From Thermosinus carboxydivorans Nor1 (GTDB taxonomy: Bacteria > Bacillota > Negativicutes > Sporomusales > Thermosinaceae): 64,000 nucleotides of DNA. The position numbers and the translations under genes are program-made. Numbering within the stretch: position 1 is the stretch's first letter; each line of letters starts with the position of its first letter. The stretch lies in contig NZ_AAWL01000012.1 of NCBI RefSeq assembly GCF_000169155.1, positions 1 through 64,000 on the forward strand. The letters run 5' to 3'. This document shows positions 7,190 through 51,079 of the stretch, piece by piece. The notes under the pieces are model-generated. The model saw nothing but the letters and a program-made list of their open reading frames with translations. It searched no databases and was not told the origin of the DNA.

Positions 7190-7957
7190 TCAGGCGCGGT
7201 TGCGTTCGTAGATGATCCGTAATCCCTCTAAGGTGAGAAGCGGCTCGACCACATCGATGGTACGCGATTCCTGAGCGATGAGACCAGCCAGCCCGCCGGT
7301 GGCGATTACATGCGCATCGCCGCCCAGCTCCTCTTTCATGCGGCGAACGATTTCGTCGACCTGCCCAACAAAGCCGTAAATAATGCCAGCCTGCATACTG
7401 GTAACCGTGTTGCGGCAGATGACCGTTTTCGGTTTTAACAGTTCGATCCGCGGCAACTTTGCCGCTCGCTGGAACAGCGCCTCGGTCGAAATGCCAATGC
7501 CGGGAGCAATAGCGCCGCCTAAGTAGTCGCCGTTTTCCGCAATCGCGCAAAAAGTGGTGGCTGTACCAAAGTCAACAATAATCGATGGCCCGCCGTACTT
7601 GGAGTAAGCAGCAATGGCATTGACAATGCGGTCAGCGCCCACTTCCCGCGGGTTTTCGTACTTAATGGCAATCCCTGTCTTAATACCGGGACCGACCACC
7701 AACGGTTCAAGGCCGAAATAGCGCTGCGCCATGCGGGTTAGCGGCGCCATAACCGGGGGTACTACCGAAGAAATGACAATGGCCTGAATTTGCTTCATGT
7801 CAAGGCCCCGGAAGCTGAACAGGTTGTGAATGAGCATGCCGTACTCGTCCGATGTTTTTTGCCGGTCGGTGGACACCCGCCAGTTCACCACCAGCTTATC
7901 GCCATCATATACCCCGAGCACAATATTGGTATTACCGACGTCAAAAACCAACAGCAT
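7190..7957 (-). CDS. coaX: Type III pantothenate kinase
   Basis: This 255-residue enzyme phosphorylates pantothenate, the first step of coenzyme A synthesis. Family marks are the phosphate-binding [16 protein letters not shown] at the N terminus, [11 protein letters not shown] in the middle and [11 protein letters not shown]. It is usually a dimer needing a monovalent cation. It belongs with panC and panD upstream and with birA and bioY in a vitamin cluster. GGGGGA lies about 11 bases before the ATG. Confidence 0.96.
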
Positions 7958-8012
7958 ATAAATTTTTGTCCCCCTATAAATTCTCGCAATAAATTTCCCC
8001 GCTTGCGCGTTT

Positions 8013-8564
8013 TTAGTTTATATAACCGGCCCGCAGCAGCGCCCGGCGCACTTTTACCCCAATGTAAGCCGCCATCACGCTTTTGATGACGTCAAAAGGG
8101 ATGAAAGGCAGCACAGCCAGGCTAATCGCTTTGTCCCACGTCATCGGCTTATGCAAAAAATATTTAAAGCTAGCCATGAACCCCACAAGGCCGAGGACGT
8201 AAGCCGTCACCAGACCAGCGAGCATCGCGCCGACAGCACGCCAGACCGTAAGCTGCGCCCGCTCAGTCATCAGCCCAACCAAATAAGCGCATACCATAAA
8301 TCCTACCAAAAAACCGCCCGTAGGACCGGCCAGCACAGCCACCCCGGCCTTACCCTGGGCAAACACGGGCAATCCGAAACAGCCGAGCAAAATCCATACG
8401 GCCACGCTAGCAACAGCCCAGCGGCTGCCGAGAATGACCCCGGCCAGCATGACAAAGAAGACCTGCAGCGTATGTGGCACCGGGCCGAGCGGTATCGAGA
8501 CCTGGGATCCTACCGCTAACAGAGCGGCAAATAAACCGGTTAAAATCATGTTGCGAATTGGCAT
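8013..8564 (-). CDS. bioY: BioY biotin transporter substrate-binding subunit
   Basis: This is an integral membrane protein of 183 residues with about six helices. It is the S-component of an ECF-type biotin importer. The N-terminal [24 protein letters not shown] and the middle [18 protein letters not shown] are characteristic. No ECF ATPase or EcfT gene is in the window, so it must use a shared energising module or act alone. The ATG at 8564 has AGGAGGAG seven bases upstream. The start lies just after the birA stop, coupling uptake with biotin ligase. Confidence 0.93.
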
Positions 8565-8577
8565 AGACTCCTCCTGT

Positions 8578-9553
8578 TCATGTGCGGGGACGGATGGTGA
8601 CGTCACCGGCCAGAATGCGGCGCACGCCTTGACCGGTATCTACCAGCAGCGCCCCCTCGTTGTCGATGTTTACTGCAATACCCGCAAAGGTTTCCCCTGG
8701 CGCCAGGACGTTAACCTGCTGGCCGAGCGTAATAGTGAGCTTCCGCCACTCGTCCAGCACCGGACCAAATCCCTGGCGCACGGCCAAACTATAGACCGTC
8801 TCCAGTTCGGCAAGCACCTCAGCCAGCAGCGCCAAGCGAGATACAGGACGGCCGGCGGCAGCGGCCACGGAGGTGGCAATGTCGCGCAGTTCGGGAGGAA
8901 ATTCCTCGGGTGCAATGTTCACGTTGATGCCCATGCCTATAACCACATAGTTGATGGCATCCATCTCAGCGCTCATCTCGGTGAGTATCCCCACCAGCTT
9001 TTTGCCCTCATACAGAATGTCATTCGGCCACTTAATACCGCAAGGCGCCTCCGTTACCTTACGGATCGCCTTTGTCAGGGCAACGGCGGCCATTAACGTA
9101 CATTTCGGCGCATCCAGGGGATGAAAAGGCGGCCTGAGCACCACTGACAGCCAAATGCCTTTGCCAAACGGCGAAAACCAGCCTCGGGCTAAGCGCCCCC
9201 GGCCGGTGCTTTGCGCTTCGGCGACGACAATCAGTCCTTCCGGACAGCCTTCGGCGGCCAACCGTTTCGCTTCATTGTTGGTCGAGCCGATTTCGGAGAA
9301 ATAGCGTATTTCTTTGCCAAGCACCGTTGTTTTGAGCCGGGCGACAATTTCCGCCGGCAACAACAGGTCGGGTGCTTGCCGGAGCAAATAACCAAGCCGC
9401 GAATGGGCCTCAATATCATACCCTTCGTTTTTGAGAGCCTGGATATGTTTCCAAACGGCGGTACGCGATACCGCGAGCTGTTTCGATATCTCCTCGCCTG
9501 AAACATACTGGCCGGCATGGTTGGCGCAATAGTTCCAAGATGCGCGTTCGCAC
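8578..9553 (-). CDS. birA: Biotin-[acetyl-CoA-carboxylase] ligase/biotin repressor BirA, with an N-terminal frameshift
   Basis: The enzyme attaches biotin to carboxylases and in many bacteria represses biotin genes. The catalytic domain is intact: STNNEAKRLA, the biotin-binding GRGRLARGWFSPFGKGIW and KWPNDILYEGKKLVGILTE. Upstream in the same frame lies a winged-helix HTH (GEEISKQLAVSRTAVWKH). The proper start, GTG at 9553 with GGGGAG nine bases upstream, gives VRTRILELLRQ in another frame. One extra C near 9508 breaks the join to HAGQYVSGEEIS. Correcting it gives about 324 residues, normal for a bifunctional BirA. As the ligase is usually essential, sequencing error is the likely explanation. 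Confidence 0.85.
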
Positions 9554-9621
9554 AGCGCTACACTCCCCTGTGAATTGTCACCTCTATCATAAGCCGAAGT
9601 TAACGCTTATGTCAATTCCTG

Positions 9622-10005
9622 CTAACCTATTTTACCATGCTGCTCTTGCCGCTTAATTTCGACAATACGGTTCGCCTCATCCAAGAATACTACGGTCGGC
9701 CGGAAAGTGCGCGCTGCGGTGTCATCCATCATTGCATAAGTTATAATTATTACCTTATCACCCGGCTGGACGAGTCGGGCGGCTGCGCCGTTCAGGCAAA
9801 TCGTCCCTGATCCTCGTTCACCGGCTATGACATAAGTTTCAAAGCGGGCGCCGTTATTGATATTTACCACTTGCACCTTCTCATTAATAAGAATGTCGGC
9901 GGCGTCCATGAGGTCTTCGTCAATAGTGATGCTGCCCACATAATTGAGGCAGGCCTCGGTCACGGTCGCGCGGTGCAGTTTAGACTTAAAAAGCGTGCGA
10001 AACAT
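9622..10005 (-). CDS. panD: Aspartate 1-decarboxylase
   Basis: This 127-residue pyruvoyl enzyme makes beta-alanine from aspartate for pantothenate synthesis. The self-cleavage site is Gly24-Ser25 in NYVGSITID, where Ser25 becomes the pyruvoyl group. Catalytic-pocket residues of [19 protein letters not shown] are present. The ATG at 10005 has GGAGGAG eight bases upstream and lies inside the end of panC (20-base overlap), so the two are translationally coupled. Confidence 0.96.
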
Positions 10006-10864
10006 GCTGCTTCTCCTCCCAGAGCAAATTATCAATCAGCCGTGTTCTGCCAATTTTTACTGCCAACGCCACCAGCGCCGGTGCGCGGACAGTATCAAGT
10101 TCTTCCAGCGTCGCGGCATCGCTGACCGAAATATAATCAATGGTTGCCAGCGGCTCACGGTCAATTAGCTCCCGCATGGCCGCAATCAGCGCCGCGGCAG
10201 AGCGTTCACCGGCATCGAGCTTTTCTTTCGCCAGTTTCAGCGCCCGGGACAGTACCAGGGCCGCCTGCCGCTCGGCCGGCGCCAGATAGACGTTGCGCGA
10301 CGACATGGCCAGGCCGTCCGGCTCGCGCACGATTGGCACCGTCACAATGCGAACATTCATGTTCAGGTCGCGGACCATGGTGCGGATGACAACTACTTGT
10401 TGGGCATCTTTTTGACCGAAATAGGCCACATCAGGTTCAACGATATTAAACAGTTTTGTAACCACGGTAGCAACACCCCGAAAATGGCCCGGCCGGGACG
10501 CGCCGCACAACCGCTCGGTAATTTTACGCACATCCACAAAGGCCAGCATATTTTCGTAGCCCTGGGGATACATTTCTTCCACCGGCGGAGCAAACAGCAC
10601 ATCCACGCCGGCAGCTGCGGCAAGTTTGCTATCACGGTCAAGATCGCGCGGATAAACGGCGAAATCTTCGTTCGGGCCGAACTGCAACGGGTTAACAAAA
10701 ATGGTGGCGACAACCACATCCTGCTCTGCCTTGGCCCAGCGCATGAGCGTCAGATGTCCCTCGTGCAGATACCCCATGGTCGGCACCAAGCCGATCGTCT
10801 TGCCTTGACGGCGTAGCTGTCTGACCAAGTTTTTTACCTCATCAATACGGGTCACAATTTGCAC
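9986..10864 (-). CDS. panC: Pantothenate synthetase
   Basis: This 292-residue enzyme joins pantoate and beta-alanine using ATP. The HIGH-like [24 protein letters not shown] and the AMP-binding MSSRNVYL are present. The GTG at 10864 is preferred because a perfect AAGGAGG ends eight bases before it. That ribosome site lies inside an apparent upstream ATG-initiated extension (10885), which is therefore rejected. panB is absent from the window. A structured leader with a terminator directly precedes the ribosome site, implying attenuation control. Confidence 0.96.
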
Positions 10865-10885
10865 GGTTAATGCCTCCTTAAACAT

Positions 10886-10916
10886 AAAAACGCCTTCTTG
10901 CTAAGACAAGAAGGCG
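10886..10916 (-). terminator. panC: Attenuator-type terminator in the panC leader
   Basis: Arms CGCCTTCTTG and CAAGAAGGCG (10916-10891) close a small loop, followed by TTTTT directly abutting the panC ribosome site. A strong terminator between promoter and first gene implies premature termination that some signal must relieve. Confidence 0.85.
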
Positions 10917-11068
10917 CATGTTCCCTATGCCGAAACACTGTTGGTCCCTTCCGTCTCAGTCCCTTTGGGCTCTAAGCGGGGTAAGACACATACTATTAAA
11001 TTCATAAACTTAACTTGTTAGGTGTGGCTCGTGATGATGCCACCCTAGCTTTTGGTTGTCCCGTAACT
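10917..11068 (-). ncRNA. Structured 5' leader RNA of panC-panD, candidate pan-motif or other riboswitch
   Basis: Transcription from the promoter at 11103-11075 would give about 150 non-coding bases before the terminator. A clear hairpin is seen at 11047-11019, with TAGGGTGGC pairing to GCCAC-A-CCTA and leaving one bulged A. Bulged-A hairpins ahead of panB, panC or panD are what is described for the pan RNA motif. I cannot check the consensus here, so the family name is tentative. A further conserved-looking stretch contains GACTGAGACGGAAGGGACC. Confidence 0.5.
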
Positions 11069-11074
11069 AATTTC

Positions 11075-11103
11075 ATGATAGCACGTTTTTGTCTACCCAG
11101 CAA
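11075..11103 (-). promoter_or_regulatory. Promoter of the panC leader
   Basis: TTGCTG (11103-11098) and TATCAT (11080-11075) are separated by exactly 17 bases on the minus strand. The predicted start lies about 7 bases further, at the 5' end of the structured leader. Confidence 0.6.
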
Positions 11104-49191: not shown

Positions 49192-51079
49192 GTGCGCCCG
49201 ACATGGGCTCTGGCTAGGTGGTAAAAGTCTACTGCGGGCGAGGCAGCACCAGCCCGCTAGCCAAGGGCAAGGGCGCCAACCGTGAGGTAGGGTCTGAAGG
49301 AAGCCGGAGGCAAAACCGCGGCCTGATGAACAAGAACCCCATACGAGGCTAGACCGTTCGGATGAGCTGGCGTAACACAGCTAAATCCCAGGCTGCCAAA
49401 GGACGGTAGAGTAAATGGGGCAGGCGTGCGGGGAAAATCAGCGTTCTTACCCGGGGAGGCCTGTCGGCAAGCTAGCTAAAGCTGGCAACCCGGGTCGAGA
49501 GGCTCGGCTGAGCCGGCAGGAGTCAGCAGAGGGCATAGTACCTCGAAGGTCATGAACTTCAGGGGAGGCCCGAACATCAAGTAGAGGTGAAACCGATGCG
49601 TTCGCAAGAAGGACGAAGAAAGCAGAATACCCCGAAAGGGGCCTACCTGCGGGAGGAAGTGGTGAAGCGATGGCGAACTGCAGGAGGGCCGAGCCCTTCT
49701 TCGGCACAAAGCGGAACATCACCTCGCGGGGACCAGGGTAACAGCCTGATGGAACAGGTGGTGGCCACAAGTAATATGACGGCCGCGCTGAAACGGGTAG
49801 AGCGAAACGGAGGCGCGCCCAGAGTTGATGGCATCCCGACCGACCGGCTTCGGGACCAAATACGCGCCGAATGGCCGCGCATCCGGGAAGAACTGCTCGC
49901 GGGTACCTACAAACCGATGCCCGTGCGCCGGGTCGAAATCCCGAAAGTGCGGAGGAGGTACACGGATGCTGGGGATACCCACCGTGATGGACCGCCTGAT
50001 CCAGCAGGCCCTTCTGCAGGTACTGACGCATATCTTTGACCCGCACTTTTCCGAAGCCAGCTACGGGTTCCGTCCTGGCAAGAAAGCACATGATGCGGTA
50101 AGGAAGGCGCGCCAATACGTGGAAGAAGGCTATGAATGGGCTGTGGACATGGACCTTGAGAAATTCTTCGACAGGGTAAACCATGATATACTCATGGCCC
50201 GAGTGGCCCGAAAAGTAACAGACAAAAGAGTGTTAAAACTCATCCGCCGCTATCTCCAGGCAGGCATCATGGTCAATGGTGTGGTCATGGACAGGGAAGA
50301 AGGAACACCGCAAAGCGGACCATTAAGCCCACTCCTGGCCAACATCCTACTGGATGACCTGGATAAGGAACTGGAGAAACGTGGCCACAAGTTCATGCGT
50401 TATGCCGATGACTGCAATATCTACGTAAAGACTAGGCGCGCGGGTGAAAGAATATTGACTAGTGTCCGCAACTACTTGCAGGAGCGGTTAAAACTCAAAC
50501 TGAACGAAGAGAAAAGCATGGTAGACCGACCGTGGAAACTGAAATTTCTGGGCTTTAGCATGTATAAAGCCAAAGGTGGGAAAATCCTCATCCGCCTGGC
50601 GTCACAAACAATCGACCGGGTGAAACAGAAAATCCGGGAAGCGACTGCTCGTAGTGCTCCACAATCAATGGCGGAGCGGATAGAACGCCTGAACACCTAT
50701 TTGGGAGGATGGATAGGATACTTCGCCTTGGCGGATACTCCCAGCGTCTTTAAGAACATAGACGGCTGGATACGGAGAAGATTACGCATGTGCCTGTGGA
50801 AGCAGTGGAAGCGAGTGAGGACCAGATACAGTGAGTTAAGGGCTTTGGGACTACCGGAATGGGTAGTGCATGAATTCGCCAATACCCGCAAAGGACCATG
50901 GCGAATGGCCCACGGGCCAATGAATAGAGCCCTGGGCAATGCCTACTGGCGAGCCCAGGGCCTGATGAGTTTAACCGAACGTTACCAAAAGCTTCGCCAA
51001 GCTTGGCGAACCGCCGGATGCGGACCCGCACGTCCGGTGGTGTGAGAGGACGGGGGCTAGCCGCCCCCTTCTACTCGAT
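49192..51079 (+). mobile_element. Group II intron, near-complete
   Basis: The 5' end GTGCGCCCGACATGGGC at 49192 and GGGTCTGAAGGAAGCCGG match group II domain I. The 3' part has a domain V hairpin (about 51004-51050: GAACCGCCGGATGCGG, then CCGCACGTCCGGTGGT) and a domain VI hairpin (CGGGGGCTAGCCGCCCCC), ending about CTACTCGAT at 51079. A reverse transcriptase/maturase lies inside, frameshifted. The exact 3' boundary is inferred from the family pattern. Confidence 0.88.
49587..51045 (+). pseudogene. ltrA: Group II intron reverse transcriptase/maturase, frameshifted
   Basis: The N-terminal part (49587-50039) reads ATSNMTAALKRVERNGGAPRVDG and runs to RRVEIPK, then loses sense. The rest is in another frame from GGGTRMLGIPTVMDRLIQQA (about 49955) to the stop at 51045. 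One extra base at about 49948 separates them. The RT active site MRYADDCNIYV, the GTPQSGPLSPLLANILLDDLD motif and the C-terminal maturase domain (WRMAHGPMNRALGNAYW) are intact; no HNH endonuclease is present. If the shift is real, the intron needs a helper protein. Confidence 0.9.

What the first reader, a model, noticed from the sequence alone, without database searches (positions are those of the whole stretch)
10886..11103. Leader RNA with terminator controlling panC-panD
A promoter with 17-base spacing, about 150 bases of structured non-coding RNA including a bulged-A hairpin, and a strong terminator abutting the panC ribosome site make a complete attenuation device. It may be a pan-motif RNA, whose ligand is not established, or a new class.
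Basis: partly seen in the sequence, partly recalled or inferred. Interest (0 to 1): 0.6.

Follow-up and report, generated by a model that had tools for sequence, protein, structure and literature searches.

The report
Pan-motif attenuator controlling vitamin B5 genes
This is a member of a known but unsolved RNA family (the 'pan' motif) that sits in front of vitamin B5 genes; its last hairpin competes with an antiterminator, so the leader looks like an off-switch, but what it senses is still unknown.

Summary
On the minus strand there is a promoter with an extended -10, a tandem pan motif (Rfam RF01749, 67.8 bits; cut-off 36.2), an intrinsic terminator and the panC ribosome site, in that order. 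Hairpin covariation is strong in 27 relatives.

New here: in 67 relatives and in a separate set of 52 loci from several phyla, the 3' strand and tail of pan hairpin 2 are complementary to the 5' arm of the following terminator. In the window the hairpin-2 state (-43.3 kcal/mol) and the antiterminator state (-43.7) are balanced at the decision point. Hairpin 2 is best read as an anti-antiterminator: held closed, it lets the terminator form.

Relatives carry pan RNAs before panB, panC, panD and DUF2520 genes and before likely importers (PanF, PanS-like, ECF), which fits negative feedback by a pantothenate/CoA-pathway signal. The own genome also has a single pan hairpin at panB. PanB, PanD and DUF2520 are each absent from some pan-carrying genomes, so none is a universal effector. 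The effector, metabolite or protein, is unknown, and there are no expression data here.

The parts
11075..11103 (-). promoter: TTGCTG, 17 nt, TATCAT with TGC extended -10; start of transcription inferred near 11068
   Evidence: sequence; TGNTANNAT upstream of pan in 57 of 70 loci vs 4 in shuffles; kept in sister species; -35 only 3 of 6, missed by the scan
10947..11046 (-). tandem pan motif, RF01749
   Evidence: Infernal 67.8 bits, gathering 36.2, model 1-92 of 92; covariation in 27 relatives
11020..11046 (-). pan hairpin 1 (P1): AGG-GUGGC-A-UC-loop-GA-GCCAC-A-CCU, two bulged A on opposite strands
   Evidence: alignment; 9 of 10 pairs change on both sides in relatives
10951..10979 (-). pan hairpin 2 (P2): CCG-CUUAG-A-GCC-loop-GGGA-CUGAG-A-CGG; proposed anti-antiterminator
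   Evidence: P2 alone -10.7 kcal/mol
10947..10957 (-). antiterminator 5' half: GAGACGGAAGG (P2 3' strand plus the conserved tail AAGG)
   Evidence: complementarity to the terminator arm in 67 and in 52 loci; forced-state energy
10903..10914 (-). antiterminator 3' half: CCUUCUUGUCUU, inside the terminator 5' arm
10886..10917 (-). intrinsic terminator GCGCCUUCUUG-loop-CAAGAAGGCG plus U-run
   Evidence: 12 pairs, 6 G-C; -18.8 kcal/mol
10873..10879 (-). Shine-Dalgarno AAGGAGG of panC, 11 bases behind the stem of the terminator
   Evidence: sequence
9986..10864 (-). panC, pantoate--beta-alanine ligase, likely GTG start
   Evidence: TIGR00018 377 bits, cut-off 212.75
9622..10035 (-). panD, aspartate 1-decarboxylase (ORF as listed; the true start is probably the internal ATG)
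   Evidence: TIGR00223 181.9 bits, cut-off 106
7190..9600 (-). following genes of the cluster: birA (frameshifted here), bioY, coaX (type III pantothenate kinase); whether the pan leader reaches them is open
   Evidence: Pfam; same order in the sister species; promoter-like site at 9615-9586 before birA

Best explanation
It is a tandem pan-motif (RF01749) leader that controls panC-panD by transcription attenuation. P2 acts as an anti-antiterminator: its 3' strand with the AAGG tail can either close P2 or pair with the 5' arm of the terminator. When an effector holds the pan hairpins closed, the terminator folds and transcription stops before panC. When it does not, the antiterminator forms and panC-panD are transcribed. 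Shown by computation: pan fold, promoter and terminator in place, a mutually exclusive antiterminator that is kept across relatives, and near-equal energies of the two states. Inferred: that the effector reports sufficient pantothenate or CoA-pathway product, that it binds the pan hairpins, and that binding means off. The effector itself is unknown; small modular hairpins lean slightly towards a protein.
For: RF01749 full-length match. Covariation: 95.9% paired cells vs 86.3 shuffled, 14 pairs changed on both sides, slid controls 30-42%. P2 tail pairs with the terminator arm: -12.2 kcal/mol vs -8.9 for shuffled arms in 67 loci; -10.9 vs -7.8 in 52 loci of other genomes; own partner better than swapped partner in both sets (23 and 22 of 5000) and still with one locus per family, weakly (4%). 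Fully changed but still paired arms, e.g. L051, L007, L052, L167. Bistability in the window: -43.3 vs -43.7 kcal/mol. Conserved promoter. Regulon of synthesis plus import genes.
Against: No expression, binding or probing data. Free folding of growing transcripts does not show the antiterminator as the most stable state, so it must be kinetic or rest on near-equality. The locus-specific part of the complementarity signal is modest once families are thinned. The sign (bound = off) is deduced from topology and gene function. Pan hairpins without a terminator exist (own panB; L024 and L044), so attenuation is not their only mode.
Confidence: 0.78

Rival explanations
1. The pan RNA is a direct metabolite riboswitch: a pantothenate/CoA-pathway small molecule binds the tandem hairpins, stabilises P2 and causes termination. 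This is the same device with a metabolite as effector.
For: Found in many phyla with only pan-pathway and transport genes in common; PanB, PanD and DUF2520 excluded as universal partners; tandem arrangement could give cooperativity.
Against: Few conserved bases per hairpin, P1 helices change freely, and single hairpins occur; no ligand reported in the papers searched; Weinberg et al. proposed a protein.
Confidence: 0.3
2. A dimeric regulatory protein, not yet identified, binds the bulged-A hairpins when pantothenate/CoA is plentiful, as PyrR does with UMP in pyr leaders.
For: Two identical small hairpins with bulged A on opposite strands; units work singly or in tandem; suggestion of Weinberg et al..
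Against: No candidate protein was found; the obvious local ones (PanB, PanD, DUF2520) are missing from some pan genomes. PanC is missing only from one incomplete genome, so it stays possible.
Confidence: 0.5
3. The terminator is an ordinary one, ending readthrough from upstream, and the pan RNA acts only on translation or mRNA stability.
For: Terminator-like sites are common by chance; pan hairpins without a terminator exist (own panB; L024 and L044).
Against: A promoter lies just before the pan RNA in most relatives, so the terminator stands inside the pan transcript; its 5' arm is complementary to the pan 3' strand in two sets.
Confidence: 0.06
4. A new RNA class unrelated to pan.
Against: Full-length RF01749 match far above the gathering score.
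Confidence: 0.01

Closest known systems
pan motif, RF01749 (Weinberg et al. 2010, PMC2864571)
   Same: Two stems each with two bulged A, in tandem, upstream of panB/panC/panD; the window element is a full member
   Different: That paper's main text gives no antiterminator and no importer genes; here both are described, and single units and many more phyla are seen
PyrR-regulated pyr attenuators (known from the field, not tested beyond the Rfam scan)
   Same: Works like: a bound anti-antiterminator hairpin blocks an antiterminator so that a terminator forms
   Different: No PyrR-site match in the window; different genes and hairpin; effector unknown
Cofactor riboswitches that act by attenuation, such as TPP or FMN (general knowledge)
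   Same: Leader position before a cofactor operon and feedback logic
   Different: No known riboswitch family matches here; ligand binding not shown; conserved core very small

Membership tests
pan motif (RF01749) | Covariance-model score above gathering | tested here: met
   67.8 vs 36.2 bits, model 1-92 of 92
[quoted passage not shown]
   Both hairpins in the window; A columns invariant or nearly so in 27 relatives
pan motif (RF01749) | Usually in tandem | tested here: met
   Two units in one match
[quoted passage not shown]
   panC-panD follow
pan motif (RF01749) | Secondary structure kept by covariation in homologues | tested here: met
metabolite riboswitch | Direct, selective binding of a metabolite by the RNA | not testable with these tools
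   needs in-line probing or in vitro transcription
metabolite riboswitch | Expression platform mutually exclusive with the aptamer | tested here: met
   P2 3' strand shared with the antiterminator
PyrR-type attenuator | Match to a PyrR binding-site family | tested here: not met
   No such match in the Rfam scan; resemblance is of mechanism only
T-box leader | T-box family match | tested here: not met
   No such match in the Rfam scan

The most novel reading that the evidence does not exclude
The pan RNA is itself the long-missing riboswitch for the CoA pathway: its paired bulged-A hairpins bind a pantothenate/CoA-pathway metabolite and drive termination without any protein.
Probability: 0.3. 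Interest if true: 0.85.

Novelty: new member of a known kind. Interest (0 to 1): 0.42.

Why it matters
The pan motif was described in 2010, no paper found in the library gives its effector, and reviews of 2022 list CoA among the cofactors with no known riboswitch. The work here turns 'a motif near pan genes' into a switch with a stated antiterminator, an expected sign (closed = off) and a regulon that includes importers. That narrows the list of possible signals and gives point mutations and a simple in vitro termination assay. The host genome also has a tandem version with terminator (panCD) and a single-hairpin version without one (panB), a natural pair for separating the roles of the hairpins.

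Tried and rejected
New RNA class: rejected by the RF01749 score. DUF2520 as regulator, because it heads many pan operons: rejected, no match in the own genome or in B. subtilis, which has a pan RNA. PanB or PanD as autoregulators: rejected as universal effectors (G005 has no PanB; G029 and G059 have no PanD). PanC: missing only from one 77%-complete pan genome, so undecided. Single pan hairpin before stand-alone panB in other members of the order: none found by a strict scan. Published ligand: none found; one likely review is not held. Minimum-energy folding of growing transcripts did not show the antiterminator as the best state; forced-state energies showed near-equality instead. First version of the hairpin extraction required pairing and so was biased; the covariation claim rests on the MAFFT alignment and its controls.

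Full report
What was claimed and what is there. All are present. An Rfam scan of the whole window gives the pan motif RF01749 at 11046-10947, full length, 67.8 bits against a gathering score of 36.2. The leader folds far better than shuffles (z = -4.5). The -35 box is weak, but an extended -10 (TGNTANNAT) stands upstream of the pan RNA in 57 of 70 loci, against about 4 in shuffles, at a median of 20 nt from hairpin 1, and the window's TGC-TATCAT and 17-base spacing are kept in the sister species.

Setting. The order on the minus strand is panC, panD, birA, bioY, coaX; the sister species has the same order. birA has its own promoter-like site at 9615-9586, so how far the pan leader's control reaches is open. 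The window's genome is 2.89 Mb in 49 contigs. A named Sporomusaceae contig of 198,417 bases (L129) has the same length as a contig of a genome that the tool calls 'same order' (G018:C19), so the host is probably in the order of the Sporomusaceae (Negativicutes); this is an inference.

Relatives. The Rfam model finds pan RNAs in 55 of 60 related genomes, some with two or three. Seventy loci, the window's own included, were fetched. On a 27-sequence alignment the two-hairpin structure is paired in 95.9% of cells (shuffled 86.3 +/- 0.8; slid structures 30-42%); 14 of 21 pairs change on both sides, and no shuffle of 500 reaches any of the measures. P1 varies in almost every pair; P2 is much more constrained.

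The antiterminator. Rfam's model ends with a conserved but unpaired tail after P2. In the relatives the terminator that follows has a 5' arm such as CCUUCCUGUC, CCUUCUUGUC or CCUUUCGGAC, which is complementary to the P2 3' strand plus that tail (GAGACGGAAGG in the window). Over 67 loci the mean duplex energy is -12.2 kcal/mol, against -8.9 +/- 0.23 for shuffled arms, -4.9 with the linker and -7.3 with the P1 5' strand as partner. Swapping partners between loci gives -11.6 +/- 0.24, and 23 of 5000 swaps are as good. The arms of 14 of these loci were picked by eye because the automatic finder chose a wrong hairpin. With one locus per family the advantage of the own partner is smaller (-12.5 against -11.6 +/- 0.48, 4%). 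Some arms have changed wholly and still pair: L051 ACAGUUUU with AAGGCUGU, L007 ACGGAG-CGU with ACG-CC-CUCCGU, L052 GGAGGC with GCCUCC, L167 ACCGAGACGG with CCCUCUCGGU, one mismatch. In the window, when the polymerase has just finished the terminator's 5' arm, the state with P2 intact is -43.3 and the state with the antiterminator forced is -43.7 kcal/mol: a balanced switch by these energy rules.

What it responds to. Genes directly behind pan RNAs in the 70 loci are panC, panD, panB, DUF2520/Rossmann proteins (PF10728), BASS transporters closest to PanS (about 300 bits, below the 400-bit equivalog cut-off), PanF above cut-off behind a YhdT-like protein, an SSS symporter, ECF substrate-binding components (PF12822) and birA. 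panB in this list was recognised by reading its sequence against the panB loci and by position. PanS of Salmonella is implicated in transport of ketopantoate and pantoate, and a BASS protein binds pantoate (PMC10645422). In the 80 read, 68 have panB, DUF2520, panC or panD as first recognised gene within 500 nt. Exceptions include S58 peptidases, ECF ATPases, SIS proteins and OPT transporters. Control of both synthesis and import is what a signal of pantothenate or CoA sufficiency would explain; this is inference, not measurement.

The effector. Weinberg et al. suggested a dimeric protein-binding site (PMC2864571). Here PanB, PanD and DUF2520 are excluded as universal effectors because genomes with pan RNAs lack them. 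Single hairpins occur: the own genome has one at the presumed 5' end of panB mRNA (L071), with the same 30 bases in the sister species and a chance rate of 0.003 per 380 nt, and most of the 80 named loci show no canonical P1 upstream (found in 11 by strict and 27 by loose criteria). The panB locus is well conserved as a whole between the two species, so the identical hairpin is by itself weak evidence of constraint. These facts lean towards a protein, but a metabolite is not excluded. No paper in the library gives a ligand; transcriptome papers only annotate the motif by Rfam.

Verdict. The interest lies in the unsolved effector and in the CoA-pathway gap among riboswitches (PMC9971707, PMC10043782), not in the novelty of this locus.

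Noticed in passing
L071 about 1436-1465 (G000:C43), upstream of panB; same genome, outside the window: A single pan hairpin (GTAGGCAGTATCCTTGGCGAACTGCACTAC) stands right behind TTGTCC-18-TACAAT and just before the panB Shine-Dalgarno, with no terminator. The Rfam two-unit model misses it; the sister species has the same 30 bases, other members of the order do not.
   Followed up: partly
window 9490-9530 (-), birA: birA carries one extra base after codon 11 or so (CGCCAACCATGCC against CGCCAGCATGCC in the sister species), which breaks the frame of the HTH part; the sister copy is intact. Draft error or true frameshift cannot be told.
   Followed up: partly
L113, L130, L133, L160, L161, L172 (mostly titled Hydrogenedentota): A single pan hairpin before panB is enclosed by GAACCG/CGGUUC, and the 3' strand of this stem runs straight into the Shine-Dalgarno; this looks like a translational version without terminator.
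   Followed up: partly
L024, L044: Before ECF transporter genes the pan tail GGAGG seems to be the Shine-Dalgarno itself, with the start codon close behind and no terminator.
   Followed up: no
L102, L165, L167 (Dehalococcoidia): The first gene behind the pan RNA is an S58 peptidase (PF03576 in L102; L165 and L167 look alike), ahead of panD-panC or DUF2520. The family includes beta-aminopeptidases, so a source of beta-alanine is conceivable.
   Followed up: no
L118, L151 (Bacillota MAGs): Pan RNA with terminator directly before an OPT oligopeptide transporter (PF03169 in L118): a possible pantothenate-related importer.
   Followed up: no
L103, L110, L111, L114, L120, L121, L126, L135, L156: The stop codon of a long upstream ORF (about 215-235 codons) lies inside the pan hairpin, 12-15 bases into it, so the RNA overlaps coding sequence there.
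   Followed up: no
L020 (G044:C3:70561-70728): A remnant of panC lies between a pan leader and a PanS-like transporter gene, as if a transporter had taken over a panC leader.
   Followed up: no
window 49276-51079 (+): Group II intron RNA domains (RF02001, RF01998, RF00029), probably one group II intron.
   Followed up: no
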